From Actinomycetota bacterium (GTDB taxonomy: Bacteria; Actinomycetota; Thermoleophilia; Solirubrobacterales; Solirubrobacteraceae), in assembly GCA_019348575.1 (NCBI GenBank), contig JAHWJE010000036.1, positions 1 through 8,989 on the forward strand: 8,989 nt of DNA, written 5' to 3'. A program made the translations under genes and the position numbers. The first letter of the stretch is position 1. Each line of letters begins with the position of its first letter. This document shows positions 1-8,989 of the stretch, piece after piece. The notes beneath the pieces were generated by a model. The model saw nothing but the letters and a program-made list of their open reading frames with translations, was not told the DNA's origin and did not search any database.

Positions 1-936
1 GAACTCGGCATCACGCTGCGGCGCGTCCCGGTCGACGACACGGCGAGCGCAGTCCAGCGTGTCGCCGCCGAGATGCGGGCGGGCCGCGACGAGGGCGGGG
101 CGGTCGACCTGATCTGGATCAACGGCGAGAACTTCGCGCAGGGCAAGCGCGACGGGCTGTGGCTGCGCGACTGGGCGCCGCAGCTTCCCAACGCGCGGCT
201 GCTCGAGGACGACGACCCGACGCTGACCCGCGACTTCGGCGTACCGGTCGACGGCCAGGAGTCGCCCTGGAGCCGGGCCGCGCTGGTGTTCGCCTACGAC
301 CGCGAACGCACGCCGCGGCCGCCGCGCGACCTCGACGCGCTGCTGGAGTACGCGCGCGCGCATCCCGGCCGGATCACGTACCCGGCGCCGCCCGACTTCA
401 CGGGCTCGGCGTTCGTGCGCTTCGTCGTGCAGACGCTGGGCGAGGACCGCGCCTTCGAGTATCTGCGCGAGCTCGAGCCGCTGCTGTGGCGTGGCGGGCG
501 CACGCACCCGAAGTCCGAGGCCGAGCTCAACCGGCTCTTCGGAAACGGGCAGGTCGACCTCGCGATGAGCTACGACCCCGGGTTCGTGGCGAACGCCGTC
601 CGCCAGGGCACGATGCCGCGCAGCGCCCGCCCGCTCGTGCTCGAGGGGCGCACGCTTCAGAATGTCAGCTTCGTGACGATTCCCGCCAACGCCGCCAACC
701 GCGCCGGCGCGCTCGTGGTCGCGAACCTGCTGCTCGACCCGGTCCTCCAGGCCAAGAAGGCCGATCCGCGCGTGATCGGCCTGCCCAGCGTCCTTCCCGA
801 CGCCGCGCTGCCCGACGACGCGGAGGCGCCACCGTCGCCGTACGTGCTCGACGACCTCGGCACGGCGATCGCCGAGCTGCCCGCCCACCGGGTGCCCGAG
901 CTCGACCGGCGCTGGAAGCGCGAGGTGCTGCGCTGA
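1..936 (+). CDS. ynjB: ABC transporter substrate-binding protein, YnjB-like (5' end outside window)
   Basis: This is an extracytoplasmic solute receptor of an ABC importer; its ligand is unknown. The reading frame is open from base 1, so the signal peptide and N-terminal part lie upstream and 311 residues are visible; the in-frame ATG at 73 is internal. Recognisable stretches are DLIWINGENF (bases 109-138), YPAPPDFTGSAFVRF (379-423) and NGQVDLAMSYDPGF (547-588), which I associate with the YnjB family (COG4134). The C-terminal half has the alternating hydrophobic pattern of a two-lobed periplasmic-binding fold. The stop TGA shares its last base with the start of the ATPase gene, so the two are translationally coupled. 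E. coli YnjB is about 390 residues, so roughly the first fifth is missing here. Family assignment comes from remembered motifs, not an alignment; other iron/thiamine/spermidine-type binding proteins are the alternative. Confidence 0.85.
   Translation, partial: ELGITLRRVPVDDTASAVQRVAAEMRAGRDEGGAVDLIWINGENFAQGKRDGLWLRDWAPQLPNARLLEDDDPTLTRDFGVPVDGQESPWSRAALVFAYDRERTPRPPRDLDALLEYARAHPGRITYPAPPDFTGSAFVRFVVQTLGEDRAFEYLRELEPLLWRGGRTHPKSEAELNRLFGNGQVDLAMSYDPGFVANAVRQGTMPRSARPLVLEGRTLQNVSFVTIPANAANRAGALVVANLLLDPVLQAKKADPRVIGLPSVLPDAALPDDAEAPPSPYVLDDLGTAIAELPAHRVPELDRRWKREVLR
922..927 (+). promoter_or_regulatory. Shine-Dalgarno sequence of the ABC ATPase gene
   Basis: GAGGTG lies 8 bases before the ATG at 936, inside the 3' end of the binding-protein gene. 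It supports the choice of the 936 start over the long upstream extension of the same frame, which has no protein-like sequence before this point. Confidence 0.6.
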
Positions 937-1973
937 TGCTCGAGTGCCGCGGGCTGAGCGTCGCCGCCGACCAGGCGCTGATCCTGCCCGCTGTCGACCT
1001 GCGCCTGCAGCGCGGCATGCTCACCGCGCTGCTGGGACCGTCGGGCGCCGGCAAGACGACCCTGCTGCGCGCGATCGCCGGGCTGCAGTCGATCAGCGCG
1101 GGCTCGGTCTCGCTCGCGGGAGAGCCGATCGACCAGCTCCCCGCCCACCGCCGCGGCGTCGGGCTCGTCTTCCAGCAGCCGCGGTTGCTGCCCCACCTCT
1201 CCGTCGTCGAGAACATCGCCTTTCCGCTGCGGCTGAGCGGGGTGCCGCGGCGAGAGCGCGGCGCCCGCGCGCGCGGCCTGCTGGACGACGTCGGCCTCGC
1301 CGGGCTGGCGGAGCGCTCCGTGCGCGGCCTGTCGGGCGGCGAGCAGCAGCGCGTCGCGCTTGCCCGCGCGCTCTGCGCGGAGCCACGCGTCCTGCTGCTC
1401 GACGAGCCGCTCAGCGCGCTGGATCCGGCTCGCCGCGACGAGCTGCGCGGGCTGATCGCGCGCGTCCAGCGCGAGCGCAAACTCACGACGCTGCTGGTCA
1501 CGCACGACCGCAACGAGGCCGCGCAGCTCGGTGACAGCCTCGCGGTGATGCTCGAAGGGCGCATCGTCCAGCACGGACACCCGCGCGAGCTGTTCGAGCG
1601 CCCCGGCTCGCCGGTGCTGGCCCGATTCCTGGGCATGCGCAACCTCTTGCGCGGCGCGGTGCGCGACGGCCGGCTCGTGCTCGACGAGGGCGCGGTGGAT
1701 GTCGACGCGCCCGACGGTGCGGCGCTCGTCGCGATCCGGCCCGAGCACGTGCGGTTGAATTCGGGCGGTCCGCTGCGCCTGCGCGTGCACGCCAGCGTCT
1801 ACGTCGGCAGCGTCGTGCGACTCGAGCTGCACGGCACGACGGCGAGGATCGAGGCGCACGTCGATCCCGACGAGGCACCGGAGGTCGGGACGATCGTCGG
1901 CGTGGAGCTGCCGCGCGAGCGGCTCTGGCCGATCCCCGAGCGGGAGCCCGGCGAGCAGCGGGCCGCGCTGTGA
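936..1973 (+). CDS. ABC transporter ATP-binding protein with C-terminal TOBE-like domain
   Basis: This ATPase powers the importer formed with the adjacent binding protein and the two permeases at 4040-5639. It has 345 residues. All nucleotide-binding motifs are intact: Walker A GPSGAGKTT at 34-42, Q-loop Q80, signature LSGGEQ at 132-137, Walker B VLLLDE at 152-157, D-loop SALD at 160-163 and switch H190. A second domain from about residue 235 to the end carries IRPEHVRL and resembles the TOBE/regulatory domain of PotA-, FbpC- and MalK-type ATPases. E. coli YnjD, as I recall, is only about 217 residues and lacks this, so the subunit is either an extended YnjD or a replacement from another family. 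The ATG overlaps the previous TGA by one base, and a GAGGTG precedes it. The end overlaps the oxidoreductase start by four bases. The ATPase role is certain; the substrate is unknown. Confidence 0.93.
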   Translation: MLECRGLSVAADQALILPAVDLRLQRGMLTALLGPSGAGKTTLLRAIAGLQSISAGSVSLAGEPIDQLPAHRRGVGLVFQQPRLLPHLSVVENIAFPLRLSGVPRRERGARARGLLDDVGLAGLAERSVRGLSGGEQQRVALARALCAEPRVLLLDEPLSALDPARRDELRGLIARVQRERKLTTLLVTHDRNEAAQLGDSLAVMLEGRIVQHGHPRELFERPGSPVLARFLGMRNLLRGAVRDGRLVLDEGAVDVDAPDGAALVAIRPEHVRLNSGGPLRLRVHASVYVGSVVRLELHGTTARIEAHVDPDEAPEVGTIVGVELPRERLWPIPEREPGEQRAAL

Positions 1974-3403
1974 CGCAGCTCGACCTCGTCGTGATCGGCG
2001 GCGGCACGGCGGGCCTGGTGGCGGCGATCGGCGCGGCGTCGATCGGCGCGCGGGTGGCGCTCGTCGAACGCGAGCGCACCGGCGGCGAGTGCCTGTGGAC
2101 CGGCTGCGTGCCCAGCAAGAGCCTGCTCGCCGCGGCCCAGCTCGCGCACCGGATGCGTCGCGCCGCTGACGTCGGGCTCGCGCCCGTCGATCCCGAGATC
2201 GACTTCGCCGCCGTCAAGCGCCACGTCGAGCGCGCGCAGGCTGCGATCGCGCCCCACGACTCGCCTGAGCGGCTGCGCGGGCTGGGCATCGACATGGTCC
2301 AGGCGAGCGCGGCGTTCACCGCGCCGCGCCGCATTCGTGCCGCTGCGCGCGAGTTGCGCGCACGGCGCGTGCTGATCGCGACCGGCTCGGAGCCCGTCCT
2401 TCCGCCGATCGCGGGCCTCGACGCGGTGGCCGCGTTGACCACCGACACGATCTGGGAGATCGACGAGCTGCCCGCGCGCCTCGCCGTGCTCGGCGGCGGG
2501 CCGATCGGCTGCGAGCTCGCGCAGGCGTTCGCGCGGCTCGGCAGTCGCGTGACGATCGTCGAGCGCGAGCCGCAGCTTCTGGGCCGCGAGGAGCCCGAGA
2601 CGAGCGAGCTGCTCGCGCGACGGCTGCGCGCGGAGGGCATCGACCTGCGCCTCGGCTGGAGCGCGATCCGGGCCGCCCCCGGCGAGCTCGAGATCGAGTG
2701 CGACGGCGAGCAGGTCGCCGTGGCGTTCGACCGCGTGCTCGTCGCGACGGGCCGGCGACCGCGGACCGAGGACCTCGACCTCGCGGCCGCCGGTGTTCAG
2801 CTCAACGCCGCCGGCGCCGTTCGCACCGACGAGCGGCTGCGAACGAGCGCGGCGGGCATCTTCGCTGCCGGTGACGTCACGGGCGCGCCGCCGTTCACGC
2901 ATCTCGCCGCCCACCACGCCCGCATCGTGGTGACGAACGCCCTGCTTCACACCCGCCGCCGCGTCGAGCAGCAGGCGGTTCCACGCGTGACGTACACCGA
3001 TCCCGAGGTGGCGGCGGTGGGACTCGGCGAGCGCGAGGCGCGCGAGCGCCACGGGCACCGCGCCACCGTCGCGCGCTTCGACTACGCGCAGCTGGACCGC
3101 GCGATCACCGACGGCGTCGCGGACGGATTCGTCAAGCTGATCGGCGACCGCCGGGGACGGCTCGTCGGTGCGACGATCGCGGCACCGGGCGCCGGGGACG
3201 CGATCGCCGAGCTCACGTCGGCGCTGCGCCGCGAGGCGCGGATCGACGAGATCTCACAGACGATCCACGCCTACCCGACGCTCGCCGAAGGGCCGGCCCG
3301 AGCCGCCGACGAGCACTTGCGCGCGAAGTACTTCAACGACCGCGTGCGTCGTGTCGCGCGCCCCGTGCTCACGATCCTGCGCGCGTTGGAGCGCCCTCGC
3401 TGA
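1970..3403 (+). CDS. FAD/NAD-dependent pyridine nucleotide-disulfide oxidoreductase (Lpd/MerA-like)
   Basis: This is a 477-residue cytoplasmic flavoenzyme of the dihydrolipoamide dehydrogenase/mercuric reductase/glutathione reductase family. Domains in order are an FAD-binding dinucleotide fold (VIGGGTAG, 8-15), the redox-active disulfide in GGECLWTGCVPSK (C41, C46), a second dinucleotide fold (GGGPIG, 175-180) with acidic E198 ending its second strand, the FAD motif FAAGDVTG, and a dimerisation domain ending with IHAYPTLAE (432-440). E198 suggests NADH rather than NADPH. The residue matching the catalytic His of Lpd (IHAHPTLHE in E. coli, from memory) is Y435, while the partner Glu E440 is kept. 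It is not a true MerA: no N-terminal metal-binding domain and no C-terminal Cys pair are present. GTG start in a GTGA overlap with the ATPase gene implies coupling to the transporter. The 3' end overlaps the convergent phosphatidyltransferase gene by 35 bases. The true electron acceptor is unknown. Confidence 0.92.
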   Translation: MTQLDLVVIGGGTAGLVAAIGAASIGARVALVERERTGGECLWTGCVPSKSLLAAAQLAHRMRRAADVGLAPVDPEIDFAAVKRHVERAQAAIAPHDSPERLRGLGIDMVQASAAFTAPRRIRAAARELRARRVLIATGSEPVLPPIAGLDAVAALTTDTIWEIDELPARLAVLGGGPIGCELAQAFARLGSRVTIVEREPQLLGREEPETSELLARRLRAEGIDLRLGWSAIRAAPGELEIECDGEQVAVAFDRVLVATGRRPRTEDLDLAAAGVQLNAAGAVRTDERLRTSAAGIFAAGDVTGAPPFTHLAAHHARIVVTNALLHTRRRVEQQAVPRVTYTDPEVAAVGLGEREARERHGHRATVARFDYAQLDRAITDGVADGFVKLIGDRRGRLVGATIAAPGAGDAIAELTSALRREARIDEISQTIHAYPTLAEGPARAADEHLRAKYFNDRVRRVARPVLTILRALERPR

Positions 3404-4007
3404 CGTGCGGGTCGGTGAGCGAGCGCAGCGCGAACACGACGCGCTGAAGCGCGGTGATCGCGACGACCGCGGCGAAGCCCCAGGCGATCGTCTCGGCGGA
3501 TCCCGGCAGCAGGCAGAACAGGACGTAGGCGATGATCGTCTCCGTTCCCTCGGCGAGCCCGCCGACGAACTGCAGCGAGCGCGGGTCGCCGCTGCGCAGC
3601 GCGCGTCGCTCGGCGAGCGAGGACCACGCGAGGAACGCCGTTCCGGACACGTAGTACGCCACGAGCAGCGCCACGCACGCCAGGCGCGCGTCGGGCTCCG
3701 CGATCGCGACGCCGAGCACGAACCCGCCGTAGACCGTGAAGTCCGCCGCGATGTCGAGGAACCCGCCGCGGTCGCTCGTGCCGCGCAGGCGGGCCAGCGG
3801 ACCGTCCAGGCCGTCGAGGGCGCGGTTGCCGAGCCACAGCGCGAGCGCGAGCGGCCACGCGGCGAACGCGGCCGCCACGCAGGCGCCGAGCCCGACGACG
3901 AAGCCCGCCACGGTGACGGCGGTGGGCGAGATCCCGGCGCTGTCCAGTCGCCGCGCGGAGGACTCGACGGCGGGCGCGACCAGCCGGCGCGTGTGCGCGT
4001 CGAGCAT
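3369..4007 (-). CDS. ynjF: CDP-alcohol phosphatidyltransferase family protein, YnjF-like
   Basis: This integral membrane enzyme would move a phosphatidyl (or similar phosphoalcohol) group from a CDP-linked donor to an alcohol. It has 212 residues, close to the roughly 206 I recall for E. coli YnjF. The family signature is complete: D65, D68-G69, A72-R73, G81, D85 and D89, arranged DxxDGxxAR-x7-GxxxDxxxD, which binds the divalent metals and the CDP-alcohol. Hydrophobic segments are near 31-60 and 92-115, with two or three more in the C-terminal half. ATG at 4007 was chosen because upstream sequence in this frame is arginine/alanine-rich and not protein-like; no good Shine-Dalgarno is visible. 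The gene is antisense within the transporter cluster. It converges with and overlaps the oxidoreductase gene by 35 bases, and diverges from the first permease across 32 bases. The acceptor alcohol cannot be told from sequence. Confidence 0.88.
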   Translation of the reverse strand: MLDAHTRRLVAPAVESSARRLDSAGISPTAVTVAGFVVGLGACVAAAFAAWPLALALWLGNRALDGLDGPLARLRGTSDRGGFLDIAADFTVYGGFVLGVAIAEPDARLACVALLVAYYVSGTAFLAWSSLAERRALRSGDPRSLQFVGGLAEGTETIIAYVLFCLLPGSAETIAWGFAAVVAITALQRVVFALRSLTDPHVSEGAPTRAGS

Positions 4008-4024
4008 GGGGCCGATGATCGCAC

Positions 4025-4036
4025 CCCGCGTGCGGG
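4025..4036. repeat. Short inverted repeat in the 32-base divergent spacer
   Basis: CCCGC and GCGGG arms surround a GT centre, filling over a third of the gap between the phosphatidyltransferase start (4007) and the permease start (4040). It could be an operator or a small hairpin, but arms of five G/C bases are common by chance in DNA this GC-rich. Confidence 0.3.
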
Positions 4037-4039
4037 CCG

Positions 4040-4876
4040 GTGGCGCTCGTGACCGGCCCCACGCTGCGTCCGCGCGCTCGCGGGGCGCTGCCCGCGATCG
4101 CAGCGCTCGGCATGCTGTTCGGGGGCGCGCTCGCCGGGGCGGCATGGCGCAGCCTGCAACCGCAGTCGCTCGTGCGCGACAGCGCGCCGCAGCTGGACGC
4201 ATGGCGAGCGCTGCTGCACGACGGCGCCTTCTGGGAGTCGCTGCGCTTCACGATCCAGTACACGACGCTGGCAACCGCGATCTCCGCCGCGACCGCGCTC
4301 GTCCTCGCCGCCGCCCTTCGCCGAGCGACCCGCGGCGCCACGCTGCTGGCGGCCGCGCCCCTGCCTGCGCCGCACCTGGTCGTCGCGACCGTCGCCGTCA
4401 TCTGGCTGGCACCGGGCGGGCTCGCCGACCGCATCCTCGGGCTCGTGGCGCTCGACGTGATCGGCGACCGCGCGGGGATCGGCATCGTGCTCGTCTACGT
4501 CTACAAGGAGGTGCCGTTCCTGACGCTGCTCGTGCTCGCGGCATGGACGCCCGGGGTGAGCGAGCGCGAGGAGGCCGCGGCGGTCGTCGGCGCGGGCCCC
4601 GTCGCACGCCTGCGCCACGTCGTCTGGCCCTCGGTGCGCGCCGCCCTGACGATCGGCTCGCTCGTCGTCGCCGCCTTCCTCCTGGGCGCACTCGAGGTGC
4701 CGCTCGTCGTCGGGCCGTCCACCCCCACCGCGCTGGCGCAGTACGCGCTCGAGGCCACGCGCACCGTCGAGCCGATCGGTCAGGCCAGGGCTGCGGCCGC
4801 CCTGCTCGTCGGTGCCGGTCTGGCGACGCTCGTCGCCCTCGCGCTCGGTCGCCTCCTGGGACGCGCCGATGCGTGA
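4040..4876 (+). CDS. ABC transporter permease, first subunit (YnjC N-half-like)
   Basis: This is an inner-membrane permease of a binding-protein-dependent ABC importer, 278 residues with about six hydrophobic segments: near 17-36, 71-93, 102-124, 146-169, then two in the last 80 residues. The cytoplasmic EAA loop that docks with the ATPase is present: E178-A179-A180, G184, then V194-x-W196-P197, matching EAAxxxG(x9)IxLP with one conservative and one non-conservative change. The GTG start at 4040 is the best available, since an in-frame stop lies at 4016-4018. A weak purine run precedes it. It overlaps the second permease by eight bases. E. coli YnjC is, as I recall, a single double-length protein of about 510 residues; here the two halves are separate genes. 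With no other ATPase or binding protein nearby, it most likely works with those at 1-1973. Confidence 0.9.
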   Translation: MALVTGPTLRPRARGALPAIAALGMLFGGALAGAAWRSLQPQSLVRDSAPQLDAWRALLHDGAFWESLRFTIQYTTLATAISAATALVLAAALRRATRGATLLAAAPLPAPHLVVATVAVIWLAPGGLADRILGLVALDVIGDRAGIGIVLVYVYKEVPFLTLLVLAAWTPGVSEREEAAAVVGAGPVARLRHVVWPSVRAALTIGSLVVAAFLLGALEVPLVVGPSTPTALAQYALEATRTVEPIGQARAAAALLVGAGLATLVALALGRLLGRADA

Positions 4877-5639
4877 GCGCCGCCGCGCGCAGCTCCTGCT
4901 CGTCGGAGCGCTCGCGGTCGCGGCCGCGCTGCCGCTCCTCACGCTGCTCGTCCGCGCGCTCGCCGACGTCTGGCGGGCCCCGGCCGTGCTGCCCCAGGAA
5001 CTCGGCCTGCGCGGCGTGCGGTACGTGCTGTCGGGCGGGGCGGGCGTGCCCGAGGCCGTTCTCAACGGCGCGCTGATCGCGCTGCTGGCGACCGCCGGCG
5101 CGCTCGTCCTGGGCTGGCCGGCGGCTCGCGCGCTGGCGGCAGCCCCCCGCCGCGTGCGCCACGTGCTCGTGGTCGCCATCGCGATGCCGCTGCTCGTCCC
5201 GCAGTACGCGATCGGCGCGGGGCTGGCCGAGTGGTTCATCCGCCTCGGCATCGCCGACACGCTGCTCGCCGTCGCCGTCGCGCACCTGATCTACACCCTG
5301 CCCTACGTCGTCGTCGTGCTCGCCGGGGCGTTCAGCCGGGAGCTGATCGAGCTCGAGGAGGCCGCCGCGACGGTCGGCGCCGGACCGCTTCAGCGCCTCG
5401 CGCTCGTCAGCCTGCCCGCGAGCCGCATCGCGCTCGCGACCGCCGCCGTGATGGCGCTGATCGTGTCGTGGAGCCAGTACGGGACGACGCTGGCGATCGG
5501 CGGCGAGACGACGACGCTTGCGGTGATGCTCGTCCCCTTCGCGCAGAGCGACCCGCAGATCGCCGCGACGCTCGCCATCCTGTTCCTCGCGCCCACGCTG
5601 ATCGCGCTCGCCGCCGTCGCGCGAACGCTGCGGATCTGA
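4869..5639 (+). CDS. ABC transporter permease, second subunit (YnjC C-half-like)
   Basis: This is the second membrane subunit of the same ABC importer, 256 residues. It has about six membrane segments (roughly 8-31, 66-91, 97-119, 133-155, 184-205, 228-250). Its EAA loop fits the consensus exactly: E164-A165-A166, G170, V180-x-L182-P183. The ATG at 4869 overlaps the first permease stop by eight bases, and TGGGA lies a few bases upstream, so the two are probably translated in a coupled way at equal amounts and form a heterodimer. The frame is open further upstream, to 4812, but that stretch is arginine/serine-rich and lies inside the first permease gene. A 59-base gap separates it from the VTT-domain gene, with no clear terminator, so that gene may belong to the same transcript. 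Confidence 0.92.
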   Translation: MRERRRAQLLLVGALAVAAALPLLTLLVRALADVWRAPAVLPQELGLRGVRYVLSGGAGVPEAVLNGALIALLATAGALVLGWPAARALAAAPRRVRHVLVVAIAMPLLVPQYAIGAGLAEWFIRLGIADTLLAVAVAHLIYTLPYVVVVLAGAFSRELIELEEAAATVGAGPLQRLALVSLPASRIALATAAVMALIVSWSQYGTTLAIGGETTTLAVMLVPFAQSDPQIAATLAILFLAPTLIALAAVARTLRI

Positions 5640-5698
5640 CCGGACCGCAGCGTGCTCGCCCGCAAGCAGCCCGTTCTGAGCACCAGCTTCCTGTCGGG

Positions 5699-6427
5699 AT
5701 GACTCCCGCCGACGCCGGGGACGGCCGCTTCACCACGCTGCTCGTGCGGCTCGGCCGATCGCCGCGCGCGCGACTGGCGATCCTCGCGGTGGCGCTCGTC
5801 GGCGGGGCGATCGCGGCGATCGCCCTGGGCGGGCCCAGCAAGGACGCGATCACGGACGCCGTCGGCTCGACAGGCGTCGCCGGTCCGCTGGTCTTCATCG
5901 CGCTCTACGTCGCGCTGACCGTGCTGCTCGTGCCGGGAACGCTGCTGACGGCGGCCGGTGGGATCCTCTTCGGCGTCGCGCTCGGGACCGCCCTCAGCCT
6001 CGTCAGCGCGACGCTGGCGGCGACGATCTGCTTTCTGATCGGCCGGCGGCTGGGTCGCGAGCACGTCGAGCAGATCGCGGGCAAGCGCGTGGCGCGGCTC
6101 GACGAGTGGATCGCCCGCAACGGGTTCGCAGCAGTCCTGTATGTGCGTCTGATACCGCTCGTGCCGTTCAACGCGCTGAACTACGTCGCCGGTGTCAGCG
6201 CCGTCGATCTGCGCAGCTACGTCGCGGCCACCGCGGTCGGGATCATCCCCGGGACGTTCGCCTACACGGCGCTGGGCGGCTCATTCGACGAACCGACGTC
6301 CCCTGAGTTCCTGGCCGCGGTCGCGCTGATCGTCGTGCTGGCCGTGGCCGCGCCGCTCGTGCAGCGCGTCGCGCGCCGGCGGGGGCTCGTCCCGGGCGAC
6401 GACGACGGCGACGAGCGCGACGCATAG
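5699..6427 (+). CDS. TVP38/TMEM64 family (VTT/SNARE-associated domain) membrane protein
   Basis: This is a 242-residue integral membrane protein of the DedA/TVP38 superfamily, whose better studied members (bacterial DedA proteins, eukaryotic TMEM41B and VMP1) move lipids between membrane leaflets. A first membrane segment lies near 26-44. The VTT core follows: VPGTLLTAAGGILFG (78-92), the half-helix motif around YVRLIPLVPFNALNYVAG (148-165) and IIPGTFAYTALGG (about 185-197), then a last membrane helix and an acidic tail. E. coli YdjX and YdjZ are members and, from memory, lie beside ynjABCDEF, which makes the placement next to YnjB-, YnjC- and YnjF-like genes meaningful. ATG at 5699 is the first good start after the permease stop; the Shine-Dalgarno is poor. 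Assignment to the family is firm. The transported lipid or ion is unknown. Confidence 0.9.
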   Translation: MTPADAGDGRFTTLLVRLGRSPRARLAILAVALVGGAIAAIALGGPSKDAITDAVGSTGVAGPLVFIALYVALTVLLVPGTLLTAAGGILFGVALGTALSLVSATLAATICFLIGRRLGREHVEQIAGKRVARLDEWIARNGFAAVLYVRLIPLVPFNALNYVAGVSAVDLRSYVAATAVGIIPGTFAYTALGGSFDEPTSPEFLAAVALIVVLAVAAPLVQRVARRRGLVPGDDDGDERDA

Positions 6428-6464: not shown

Positions 6465-7721
6465 TCAGGCCGAGCGCGTGGACGATGCGCGCTCGGGCTT
6501 GGCGCGCGCCTGCAGCGACGTGTCGCCATGCAGCGCCGCAAAGGCGATCGGCGCGATCAGCACGCTGAGCAGCGCGACGCAGATGAGCGCGGCGCCGAGC
6601 GCCTCGTCGATCAGGCCGAGGCGTTGGCCGATCTCCACACCGGCGACGGTCAGCGTCATCTGCGCCGATTGCAGCGCGCCTGCCGCGGCGCAGTCACGCC
6701 ACGCGAACTCGTCGCGGTACAACAGCGCGGGAACGCCCTTGACGAGGAAGACCGCGACGAGGAGCACAGGCACGAGCGCGAGCGTCTCGCCGGCGTCGAG
6801 CAGCGCCGGCACGTCGAGCCGCGCCCCGGTGAGGATGAAGAACACCGGGACGAAGAAGCCGTAGCCGATCGCGTCGACCTTCACCTGATAGACGGGGTGC
6901 GCCCGTCCCACCGACAGCGCCGACACGATCGCGCCGGCGACGAAGGCGCCGAGTATCACCTCGAGCCCGAACTCGGCTGCGAGCGCGACGAAGGCGAGCA
7001 GCAGCGCGAAGCTGGCGCGGATGCGCAGCTCGGCCGGCGCGCCGGACAGACGCTCGACGAGCGCCGCGAGCCGACCGCGCGACGAGGCGGCGCGCAGCCC
7101 CCAGAACAGCGCCAGGCCGAGCGCGATCAGCAGGGCGATCAGCGCGACGCGCACACCCGGCGAGCGAGCATCGGCCGAGAAGAAGATCGTCAGCAGCAAG
7201 ACCGTGGCGAAGTCGGCGACGGCCGCCGACAGAAACAGGCGCTGGCCGTAGCGCTCGCGCAGCAGCTCGTGCTCGGTCAGGACCGACAGGACGATCCCCA
7301 GCGAGGTCGACGAGAGCAGGAACGCCACGAGCACCGGGCCGGGCAGCAGGCCGGCGAGCCACAGCGGCACCGTGATCGCGAACGCGACGGCGAGCCGGAT
7401 CGCCATCCCCAGCAGGGCGCGCCCGAACGGCGACCCGAGGGCGTGCCGCACCCCGTGCGAGAGCGTGCCGCGCAGCAGCGAGGGGTCGAACTCGAGCCCG
7501 GCGAGGAACAGCAGGAACGCGAGGCCGAACAGAAACAGGAACTCGAGGTGGCCGGCGTGCGGGTCGATCAGGCCGAGGCCGCTGGCGCCGAGCGCGACGC
7601 CGGCGACGACCTCGCCGACGACACTCGGGATCTTCGGCCCGGGGAGCACCGCGAGCAGCAGCGGGACCGCGAACGCGGCGAGCGCCACCACGACGAGCGA
7701 CGCGAAGTCGAGCTCGGTCAC
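6465..7721 (-). CDS. CPA2-type cation:proton antiporter (KefB/GerN-like membrane domain)
   Basis: This 418-residue polytopic protein, with about 12-13 hydrophobic segments, should exchange Na+ or K+ for protons across the cytoplasmic membrane. Family features are VVGEVVAGVALGASGLGL (34-51) near the N terminus, LLFLAGLEFD (70-79), the unwound-helix stretch STSLGIVLSVL (138-148), and the ion-binding helix AAVADFATVLLL with D170. The residue before D170 is Ala, where relatives have Asp, Asn or Gln. It ends soon after the membrane domain with a charged tail, so it lacks the TrkA-N/RCK nucleotide-binding domain of full KefB/KefC. GTG at 7721 is preceded by AAGG five to six bases away. It converges with the VTT gene and diverges from the SDR gene, so it is transcribed alone. 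Ion specificity cannot be read from sequence. Confidence 0.9.
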   Translation of the reverse strand: MTELDFASLVVVALAAFAVPLLLAVLPGPKIPSVVGEVVAGVALGASGLGLIDPHAGHLEFLFLFGLAFLLFLAGLEFDPSLLRGTLSHGVRHALGSPFGRALLGMAIRLAVAFAITVPLWLAGLLPGPVLVAFLLSSTSLGIVLSVLTEHELLRERYGQRLFLSAAVADFATVLLLTIFFSADARSPGVRVALIALLIALGLALFWGLRAASSRGRLAALVERLSGAPAELRIRASFALLLAFVALAAEFGLEVILGAFVAGAIVSALSVGRAHPVYQVKVDAIGYGFFVPVFFILTGARLDVPALLDAGETLALVPVLLVAVFLVKGVPALLYRDEFAWRDCAAAGALQSAQMTLTVAGVEIGQRLGLIDEALGAALICVALLSVLIAPIAFAALHGDTSLQARAKPERASSTRSA

Positions 7722-7830: not shown

Positions 7831-8658
7831 ATGGGAGTTCTGGACGGCAAGGTCGCGATCGTCACCGGCTCTGCGCGGGGCATCGGCCGCGCGACGGCGG
7901 AGCTGCTCTGCGAGCATGGCGCGAAGGTCCTGGTCAACGACCTCGACGGTGACGCGGCCGAGCAGAGCGCATCCGAGATCGCCGGCGAGACCGCGGTCCA
8001 CAGCGGCGACCTCACCGCCCCCGGCGCATGCGACGAGCTCGTCCGCGCCGCGATCGACGCGTGGGGCAAGATCGACATCATCGTCAACAACGCCGGCTAC
8101 ACGATCGACGGCGCGGTTCACAAGATGAGCGACGAAGCGTTCCAGCGGATGCTCGACATCCACGCCGTCGTCCCGTTTCGCGTCATCCGCGCCGCCGCGC
8201 CGCACCTGCGCGAGCCGGCCAAGAAGGAGCGCGAGGAGGGCGTCGAGATCTTTCGCAAGATCGTCAACGTCTCGTCGATCTCGGGCACGATGGGCAACGC
8301 GGGGCAGGCGAACTACGCCGCCGGCAAGGCGGCCGTCGTCGGCCTGACGAAGACGCTCGCCAAGGAGTGGGGCCAGTTCAAGATCAACGTCAACGCCGTC
8401 GCGTTCGGCTTCATCGAGACGCGGCTGACCGCGCCGAAGGACGAGGACAACACGATGCAGATCGGCGGAGAGAAGGTCCAGCTCGGGATCCCCGAGCAGA
8501 TGCGCGGGATGGCCTCCTACGTCATCCCGCTCGGGCGGCTGGGCACGCCGCAGGAGGCCGCGGGCGGCGTCTTCTTCCTCTGCTCGCCCTGGTCGAACTA
8601 TGTCCACGGGCAGACGCTGAACGTCACCGGCGGCCAGTTCACGGGGATGACGGCCTAG
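7831..8658 (+). CDS. Short-chain dehydrogenase/reductase (SDR) family oxidoreductase
   Basis: This 275-residue cytoplasmic NAD(P)-dependent oxidoreductase has a classical SDR fold. Visible motifs are TGSARGIG (12-19, cofactor binding), D37 at the end of the second strand (suggesting NAD(H)), D60 in GDL, NNAG (86-89), catalytic S149 in NVSSISG, and Y162-x3-K166. The usual tetrad Asn, in the vNxxgPF position, is H111 (DIHAVVPF). Between the fourth helix and fifth strand lies a charged stretch of about 15 residues (130-143, KKEREEGVEIFRK) that is longer than in FabG-type enzymes. AFGFIETRLT replaces the commoner APGFI. Annotation as 3-oxoacyl-ACP reductase would be over-specific; the substrate is unknown. 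The start is set by AAGGAG eight bases upstream. It is divergent from the antiporter and followed after 101 bases by a cupin gene on the same strand. Confidence 0.93.
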   Translation: MGVLDGKVAIVTGSARGIGRATAELLCEHGAKVLVNDLDGDAAEQSASEIAGETAVHSGDLTAPGACDELVRAAIDAWGKIDIIVNNAGYTIDGAVHKMSDEAFQRMLDIHAVVPFRVIRAAAPHLREPAKKEREEGVEIFRKIVNVSSISGTMGNAGQANYAAGKAAVVGLTKTLAKEWGQFKINVNAVAFGFIETRLTAPKDEDNTMQIGGEKVQLGIPEQMRGMASYVIPLGRLGTPQEAAGGVFFLCSPWSNYVHGQTLNVTGGQFTGMTA

Positions 8659-8726: not shown

Positions 8727-8737
8727 CCGACAGTCGG
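8727..8737. promoter_or_regulatory. Inverted repeat upstream of the cupin gene, possible operator
   Basis: CCGAC-A-GTCGG is a perfect 5-bp dyad about one base centre. It sits 9 bases upstream of the proposed -10 box at 8747, over the place where a -35 would lie, so it is positioned for a regulator. Confidence 0.35.
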
Positions 8738-8746
8738 GCGTGAGAG

Positions 8747-8752
8747 TAGTCT
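8747..8752 (+). promoter_or_regulatory. Putative -10 element of a leaderless cupin transcript
   Basis: TAGTCT matches TANNNT and is separated from the GTG start codon at 8760 by exactly seven bases, the spacing at which transcription would begin on the start codon itself. No Shine-Dalgarno precedes the GTG, which is consistent with leaderless translation as is common in actinobacteria. Confidence 0.45.
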
Positions 8753-8759
8753 TTCGCTG

Positions 8760-8989
8760 GTGCAGATCGTCAAGCCCGGTCCTGATCGTCTCGTGCCGCG
8801 CGGGGTCGTCGGCGGCGCCGAGGTCTCGCAGGCGACGACCGGGGCGGCGAACATCTACATGGGGGTCTTCCGCGTGCCGGCCGGCTCGCAGTCGCGCCCG
8901 CATTACCACGCCGACTGCGAGTCGGCGGTCTACATGCTCTCCGGACGGCTGAACGTCCGCTGGGGCGAGCAGCTCGAGCACACGCTCAC
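8760..8989 (+). CDS. Cupin domain-containing protein (3' end outside window)
   Basis: This is the first 76 residues of a small beta-barrel cupin. The metal-binding motif is visible: G42, H48-x-H50, E54 and G62 in GSQSRPHYHADCESAVYMLSG (residues 42-62), close to the G(x)5HxH(x)3-4E(x)6G consensus with one extra residue before the last Gly. The second motif, with the third His, lies beyond the window. GTG at 8760 is chosen because it starts the conserved-looking MQIVKPG and no better in-frame start lies upstream. Cupins bind Mn, Fe, Zn or Ni and may be dioxygenases, isomerases, or sugar or hormone-like ligand sensors; nothing here selects among them. It may be functionally linked with the preceding SDR gene, but the separate promoter-like signal argues for independent expression. 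Confidence 0.82.
   Translation, partial: MQIVKPGPDRLVPRGVVGGAEVSQATTGAANIYMGVFRVPAGSQSRPHYHADCESAVYMLSGRLNVRWGEQLEHTL

What the first reader, a model, noticed from the sequence alone, without database searches (positions are those of the whole stretch)
1..6427. YnjB/ABC/disulfide-reductase/YnjF/VTT cluster as a conserved but unexplained system
Seen directly: binding protein, ABC ATPase, two permeases, FAD disulfide oxidoreductase, CDP-alcohol phosphatidyltransferase and TVP38/VTT protein are packed together. From memory, E. coli has ydjX and ydjZ (VTT), ynjB, ynjC and ynjD (ABC), ynjE (rhodanese) and ynjF (CDP-alcohol phosphatidyltransferase) side by side. Finding the same families in a distant high-GC bacterium, with a different redox enzyme filling the ynjA/ynjE place, suggests a functional unit rather than chance. 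Inference: it imports a solute that is then reduced or handled by a disulfide enzyme at the membrane.
Basis: partly seen in the sequence, partly recalled or inferred. Interest (0 to 1): 0.72.

Follow-up and report, generated by a model that had tools for sequence, protein, structure and literature searches.

The report
Widespread Ynj transporter–lipid gene cluster
A set of neighbouring genes that is still largely uncharacterised in E. coli turns up, with parts swapped in and out, in at least five bacterial phyla, and its parts suggest that it imports a small alcohol and attaches it to a membrane lipid.

Summary
The cluster is real. Window 1-6427 encodes YnjB (start cut off), an ABC ATPase, a disulfide-type flavoprotein (RED), an antisense YnjF-type CDP-alcohol phosphotransferase, two permeases (YnjC split in two) and a TVP38/VTT protein. 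YnjB and YnjF are about 40% identical to E. coli's. Of 78 YnjB loci from evenly drawn genomes of five phyla, 46 have YnjF, 41 VTT (chance: about 1.5 of 80) and 22 RED nearby. In Pseudomonadota a strong YnjF is in 29 of 31 YnjB+ and 6 of 268 YnjB- genomes. But RED goes with VTT rather than the transporter and is common without YnjB. An APH-type phosphotransferase replaces YnjF. Relatives close to the window often add an undescribed radical SAM protein whose predicted fold is nearest tetraether-lipid synthase; it is rare in the even sample (1 of 18 actinobacterial loci). Best explanation, inferred: a small alcohol is imported and attached to a phospholipid that VTT moves. Substrate and product are unknown.

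The parts
1..936 (+). YnjB-type solute-binding protein, 311 aa, N-terminal part cut off by the window start
   Evidence: NF008633 350 bits, cut-off 203; 40% identical to E. coli YnjB; a 92% identical full-length relative, P0002, folds as a solute-binding protein, pLDDT 92
936..1973 (+). ABC ATPase with a TOBE_2 domain (YnjD position)
   Evidence: ABC_tran 124 bits, TOBE_2 33 bits; 37% identical to E. coli YnjD; ATG overlaps the ynjB stop
1970..3403 (+). RED: FAD pyridine-nucleotide-disulfide oxidoreductase, CxxxxC (motif from 2081) and C-terminal HAYPT (from 3266)
   Evidence: Pyr_redox_2 and Pyr_redox_dim; below the cut-off of each of the 25 NCBIfam families shown, MerA 376 of 454 among them; both Cys and the His invariant in 11 of 11 aligned sequences, window included
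3369..4007 (-). YnjF-type CDP-alcohol phosphotransferase, antisense inside the run; signature DGLDGPLAR...GGFLDIAAD at 3741-3815
   Evidence: CDP-OH_P_transf; 40% identical to E. coli YnjF; signature residues conserved in 82 to 84 of 84 sequences
4040..4876 (+). permease 1, matches the first half of YnjC
   Evidence: E 9e-10; weak ABC-permease hits, no Pfam hit
4869..5639 (+). permease 2, matches the second half of YnjC
   Evidence: BPD_transp_1 31.7 bits; weak YnjC match, E 0.001
5699..6427 (+). TVP38/VTT (YdjX-type) membrane protein
   Evidence: VTT_dom 97 bits; E. coli YdjX E 1e-31, YdjZ E 4e-26

Best explanation
The cluster is a modular unit. Shown by gene content: YnjBCD, an importer-type ABC system with a binding protein, goes with one alcohol-handling gene (YnjF, or in other loci an APH-type phosphotransferase, about half the time with two glycosyltransferase-like genes), and often with a VTT protein plus one redox partner. 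Inferred: YnjB catches a small polar alcohol; the permeases and ATPase bring it in; YnjF joins it to the phosphatidyl group of CDP-diacylglycerol, giving a phospholipid with that head group; VTT moves this lipid across the membrane, with the redox protein as VTT's own partner; and in some Actinobacteria a radical SAM enzyme with a tetraether-synthase-like fold alters the lipid chains.
Against: No substrate or lipid product is known; nothing here was tested at the bench. 12 of 78 YnjB loci have none of VTT, YnjF, APH-type gene, RED or nucleoside hydrolase nearby; two of these, L098 and L147, are contigs under 5 kb. YnjB+ genome G487 has no strong YnjF and no APH-type gene near ynjB. RED is common without YnjB. 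The radical SAM protein is not in the window; in the even sample it is near YnjB in only 1 of 18 actinobacterial loci, it also occurs in 2 of 181 YnjB- Actinomycetota genomes, and by sequence it matches the tetraether synthase family at 18.9 bits against a cut-off of 450. Near folds to YnjB include hexose-phosphate binders, so the ligand may already be phosphorylated. YnjF keeps the other acceptor Arg of PIP synthases in 81 of 84, and a crude hydropathy scan did not settle its helix number. Its donor was not testable; its best solved relative, 4mnd, is named a CDP-inositol enzyme.
Confidence: 0.4

Rival explanations
1. Sugar or nucleoside salvage: YnjBCD imports a sugar-like or nucleoside-like molecule; nucleoside hydrolase, APH-type phosphotransferase and glycosyltransferase-like genes turn it into a soluble conjugate, and YnjF makes a soluble or polymeric phosphodiester, as DIPP synthase does.
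For: 7 of 78 loci carry relatives of the L139 proteins that score as TIGR04283 (267.8 bits, cut-off 182) and TIGR04282 (181.2, cut-off 134); all 7 have the APH-type gene. Relatives of two nucleoside-hydrolase proteins are near YnjB in 11 of 78. Best solved relative of YnjF by sequence is DIPP synthase 4mnd. AfuA with hexose phosphate is Foldseek's top match of YnjB, among many close ones.
Against: 46 of 78 loci have YnjF and only 1 of these the APH-type gene. It leaves VTT and the lipid-synthase-like radical SAM protein unexplained.
Confidence: 0.25
2. One reading: an imported disulfide or oxidised solute is reduced by RED or its replacements.
For: RED and the rhodanese/AhpD/YdjY/iron-sulfur genes exclude one another, as alternatives would. 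In E. coli ynjABCDEFI group with Suf iron-sulfur genes in a genetic-interaction map (PMC3930520, one passage read).
Against: The redox gene goes with VTT, RED is fused to VTT in 9 loci, 40 of 78 YnjB loci have none of these redox genes nearby, and RED is common without YnjB.
Confidence: 0.15
3. Metalloid or mercury handling: the unit makes or moves an organo-arsenic or selenium compound, or reduces mercury.
For: TIGR04282 and TIGR04283 are named arsenosugar biosynthesis glycosyltransferases; E. coli YnjA and YnjE match selenoprotein-linked or selenite-linked families below cut-off; RED resembles MerA at 376 bits.
Against: The radical SAM family TIGR04167, recalled as the arsenosugar enzyme ArsS, is in 1 of 80 YnjB+ genomes. 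RED misses the MerA cut-off of 454.
Confidence: 0.1
4. Plain co-location of unrelated genes without shared function.
For: 12 of 78 loci lack the partners.
Against: VTT, a YnjF or APH gene and a redox gene occur together in loci of four phyla in differing order; YnjF follows YnjB even when unlinked.
Confidence: 0.03

Closest known systems
E. coli K-12 ydjXYZ-ynjABCDE and antisense ynjF (ydjXYZ-ynjABCD is listed as FNR-activated in PMC3688515, table passage)
   Same: YnjB, YnjC, YnjD, YnjF and YdjX relatives together, with YnjF antisense to the rest
   Different: The window has a split permease, a longer ATPase with TOBE_2, and RED where E. coli has YdjY, YnjA and YnjE; gene order differs
Phosphatidylinositol-phosphate and DIPP synthases (class I CDP-alcohol phosphotransferases)
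   Same: Catalytic signature; nearest solved relatives of YnjF by sequence
   Different: The acceptor motif RxxR of PIP synthases is GTET in the window
COG0398 DedA proteins fused to pyridine-nucleotide-disulfide oxidoreductase (PMC10127716, passages)
   Same: Same two partners; 9 of 78 YnjB loci carry such a fusion
   Different: In the window the two are separate genes with an importer and YnjF
GDGT-MAS tetraether lipid synthase (7tol, 7tom)
   Different: Sequence far below the family cut-off; not in the window itself

Membership tests
YnjB family NF008633 | whole-protein score over the curated cut-off of 203 | tested here: met
   350 bits although the N-terminus is missing
YnjBCD in E. coli form | single fused permease YnjC | tested here: not met
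   two permease genes, 4040-4876 and 4869-5639
Class I CDP-alcohol phosphotransferase | eight-residue signature DxxDGxxAR...GxxxDxxxD | tested here: met
   window 3741-3815; 82 to 84 of 84 sequences
PIP synthase | acceptor arginines R153 and R191 (Renibacterium numbering, PMC4634129, passages) | tested here: not met
   the RxxR holding R153 is GTET in the window; an Arg is kept at the second place, residue 189; NF045883 27.3 bits, cut-off 170
Mercuric reductase MerA | TIGR02053 cut-off 454.45 | tested here: not met
   376.5 bits
Undecaprenyl-phosphate transporter UptA | NF052604 cut-off 250 | tested here: not met
   32.5 bits
Known importers (PhnT2, PotA, tungstate, sulfate, thiamine and others listed) | equivalog cut-offs for ATPase or permeases | tested here: not met
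   ATPase best PhnT2 265 of 458; permeases 44 and 55 of 593 for PhnU2 (25 of 190 ATPase hits shown)
Arsenosugar biosynthesis | radical SAM family TIGR04167 in the same genome (role recalled) | tested here: not met
   1 of 80 YnjB+ genomes; the window's own genome is not held
Tetraether lipid synthase (radical SAM neighbour) | NF045702 cut-off 450 | tested here: not met
   18.9 bits for L024; fold similarity only
Phospholipid flippase (VTT) | lipid transport activity | not testable with these tools
   family assignment only

The most novel reading that the evidence does not exclude
Bacteria of at least five phyla, E. coli included, import a specific alcohol and fix it as the head group of a phospholipid not yet described, which a DedA-type protein distributes; some Actinobacteria further tailor its chains with a new radical SAM enzyme.
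Probability: 0.25. Interest if true: 0.85.

Novelty: new variant of a known kind. Interest (0 to 1): 0.6.

Why it matters
E. coli K-12 has a run of nine neighbouring genes, ydjX to ynjF, most of them annotated only by domain or as putative. The data tie this run to a unit found in at least five phyla, name its tightest pair (importer and YnjF), split off the VTT-redox pair as a separate module, and give a cheap test in a laboratory strain. If the lipid reading holds, it would add a phospholipid class and give a role to part of the DedA family.

Tried and rejected
Arsenosugar biosynthesis was suggested by TIGR04282 and TIGR04283 in APH-type loci, and dropped after TIGR04167 was found in 1 of 80 genomes. 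Mercury reduction was set aside on the MerA cut-off. A link of YnjA and YnjE to selenium rested on below-cut-off hits only. A weak hit of the radical SAM protein to the selenoprotein family TrsS (25 bits, cut-off 490) led to one review, passages read, which says nothing on function. ECF sigma factor and methyltransferase neighbours (15 and 13 of 82 loci) were not pursued: those models are generic. HrpB helicase, ferritin-like and aconitase neighbours (9, 6 and 4 of 82 loci) were taken for neighbours of single lineages and not tested further. Sequence search of solved structures for YnjB gave nothing with the small profile and weak polyamine-binder hits with the large one; the radical SAM profile gave no significant hit by sequence; VTT gave none. 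Fold matches of YnjB are tied among many binding-protein kinds, so no ligand was named from them. YnjF is antisense to YnjB in 6 of 6 actinobacterial, 4 of 21 Pseudomonadota, 1 of 10 Bacillota, 2 of 8 Chloroflexota and 0 of 1 Desulfobacterota copies of the even sample, but on the same strand in the actinobacterial loci L017, L020, L025 and L069's map or gene list; it was not used as evidence.

Limits of the counts. The 78 loci come from 76 genomes; the five centre genomes (G001, G003, G004, G005, G010) were left out of them because they had been chosen for having YnjB, but they are in the prevalence counts, and G010 is in the 29 of 31. At least four of the 78 (L084, L088, L095, L100) have the contig length of first-survey loci (L068, L072, L002, L033) and are probably the same, so the models, which I built from the first survey, are not independent of them. 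Genomes within a phylum are related; one search repeats the tests on 48 and 25 representatives, p 2e-7 to 0.026. Strong YnjF means 194 bits or more and strong RED 467 or more, cut by me at gaps in the score lists; the searches scored only the best 10 (YnjF), 5 (RED) and 7 (radical SAM) candidates of a genome, so some may be missed. The strong radical SAM matches are 5 of 198; a sixth weak one, G193, was dropped. Expected VTT uses PF09335 matches and rounded genome sizes, observed VTT my own model. Only the L139 proteins, and only one protein per nucleoside-hydrolase and APH group, were checked against Pfam or NCBIfam.
Full report
What is in the window. The window encodes, on the plus strand unless stated, YnjB (1-936, its start cut off), an ABC ATPase (936-1973), a pyridine-nucleotide-disulfide oxidoreductase here called RED (1970-3403), a CDP-alcohol phosphotransferase on the minus strand (3369-4007), two permeases (4040-4876 and 4869-5639) and a TVP38/VTT protein (5699-6427). 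Family scans support the naming, though permease 1 has no Pfam hit. The genes overlap or almost touch, except that VTT starts 59 bases after permease 2. After VTT come an Na/H-exchanger-type antiporter (minus strand), a FabG-like reductase and the start of another gene. I did not search the relatives for the antiporter; the reductase belongs to a very large family. I leave these out.

Relation to E. coli. In K-12 the order is ydjX, ydjY, ydjZ, ynjA, ynjB, ynjC, ynjD, ynjE and antisense ynjF. The window's YnjB and YnjF are 40% identical to those of E. coli, VTT is closest to YdjX, and the two permeases match the two halves of YnjC, the second only weakly. The organism is probably a Solirubrobacteraceae or near relative: the closest listed YnjB with an organism name is 92% identical and from a Solirubrobacteraceae MAG. 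No genome is held for the window.

First survey. 80 YnjB loci with named organisms (the best 80 of 583 found, itself a capped number) came from actinobacteria, alphaproteobacteria, Desulfobacterota-type bacteria, Chloroflexi and Paenibacillus/Cohnella. With E. coli and the window this made 82 loci. Relatives of RED, some weak, were found in 37 of 82, of the transferase in 38 and of VTT in 36. Clustering of the remaining neighbours found a further family, a radical SAM protein of about 460 residues, in 24 of the 80, all actinobacterial. In the close relatives L002 and L008 it sits directly upstream of ynjB, and in L003, L004 and L010 elsewhere in the locus; it was not found in L005, L006, L007, L009 and L011, most of them cut short. 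So it is predicted, not shown, just outside window base 1.

Even sampling. To reduce the bias of that survey, genomes drawn evenly from phyla were searched for YnjB: over cut-off in 17 of 198 Actinomycetota, 31 of 299 Pseudomonadota, 18 of 199 Bacillota, 13 of 151 Chloroflexota and 2 of 148 Desulfobacterota, each including its centre genome. 78 loci from 76 of these genomes, the centres left out, were fetched and mapped. Within 8 kb of YnjB: YnjF 46, VTT 41 (9 of them fused to RED), RED 22, APH-type phosphotransferase 13, iron-sulfur CCG protein 10, YnjE 9, YnjA 4, YdjY 2, radical SAM protein 1; 12 of 78 had none of VTT, YnjF, APH, RED or nucleoside hydrolase. VTT genes are common (346 in 80 YnjB+ genomes), yet uniform placement predicts only about 1.5 loci with one nearby.

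Structure of the unit. YnjF and the APH-type gene exclude each other (1 both, 45 and 12 alone, 20 neither; p 4.9e-5). RED excludes the YnjE/YnjA/YdjY/CCG set (0 both, 22 and 16 alone, 40 neither; p 0.0038). VTT goes with a redox gene (33 of 41, against 5 of 37; p 1.7e-9). With one locus per YnjB cluster at 70% or 55% identity (48 or 25 loci) all three hold, with p from 2e-7 to 0.026. Genome-wide in Pseudomonadota, a strong YnjF is in 29 of 31 YnjB+ and 6 of 268 YnjB- genomes (p 4e-32); 8 of the 29 are not beside ynjB. Of the two exceptions, G293 has the APH-type gene with the two glycosyltransferase-like genes, and G487 has neither nearby. Strong RED is in 22 of 31 and 114 of 268 (p 0.0037), so it is much less specific. 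I take the importer and its alcohol-handling partner as the core, and VTT with a redox protein as a second module that also lives without YnjB.

Interpretation. A transferase that makes phosphodiesters with small alcohols, a VTT protein whose subfamily is described as putative phospholipid flippases (PMC10127716, passages; the subfamily was not tested here) and, in part of the Actinobacteria, a lipid-synthase-like radical SAM protein all point to lipid. The best reading is import of an alcohol for a phospholipid head group. This is inference; the donor, the alcohol and the lipid are unknown. In APH-type loci a soluble route with sugar-type enzymes is as likely.

Literature. I read passages of four papers that name these genes: FNR activation (PMC3688515), BaeR induction (PMC2731931), grouping with Suf genes (PMC3930520) and enrichment in cold-brine Marinobacter (PMC9207381). 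PMC8921622, PMC9405208, PMC7660256, PMC9397018 and PMC3305326 were seen in listings only. Searches for ynjB with ydjX, operon names, YnjB with ABC transporter words, the COG numbers, TVP38 with CDP-alcohol phosphatidyltransferase, and three or more of ynjA-F listed no paper whose title or abstract start presents the function of the unit; most subscription papers are not in that library.

Noticed in passing
window 3369-4040: The ynjF gene is antisense inside the run, overlapping the end of RED by 35 bases and starting 32 bases from permease 1; it is antisense in all 6 actinobacterial copies of the even sample, in E. coli and in the four E. coli-like loci, but mostly not elsewhere.
   Followed up: partly
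window 6465-7721 (-), 7831-8658 (+), about 8730-8989 (+): An Na/H-exchanger-type antiporter (CPA2-like), a FabG-like short-chain reductase and a partial gene that looks cupin-like by eye follow the cluster.
   Followed up: no
L139:13285-14765 and six other APH-type loci of the even sample: Relatives of TIGR04283 and TIGR04282 proteins, named arsenosugar biosynthesis glycosyltransferases, occur with YnjBCD although TIGR04167 is in only 1 of 80 YnjB+ genomes, so the label may be too narrow.
   Followed up: partly
G219:C14:19238-21273 and G294:C1:1906639-1910486: RED in a frame long enough for a VTT fusion (715 and 742 aa) lies beside a strong YnjF in two Pseudomonadota genomes without YnjB.
   Followed up: no
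L024:13985-15610 (-) and 23 other actinobacterial loci: A radical SAM family with 2557 database matches at E 0.001 (the 120 listed are unnamed or named hypothetical or radical SAM protein), with fold nearest to tetraether lipid synthase.
   Followed up: partly
L123, L125-L129: A DUF547-type protein lies in the YnjB/VTT-RED/YnjF locus of six Pseudomonadota genomes.
   Followed up: no
L082, L085, L088, L089, L124 and L097, L132, L134, L141, L146, L148: Relatives of two nucleoside-hydrolase-type proteins lie near YnjBCD, in 10 of these 11 loci without YnjF.
   Followed up: no
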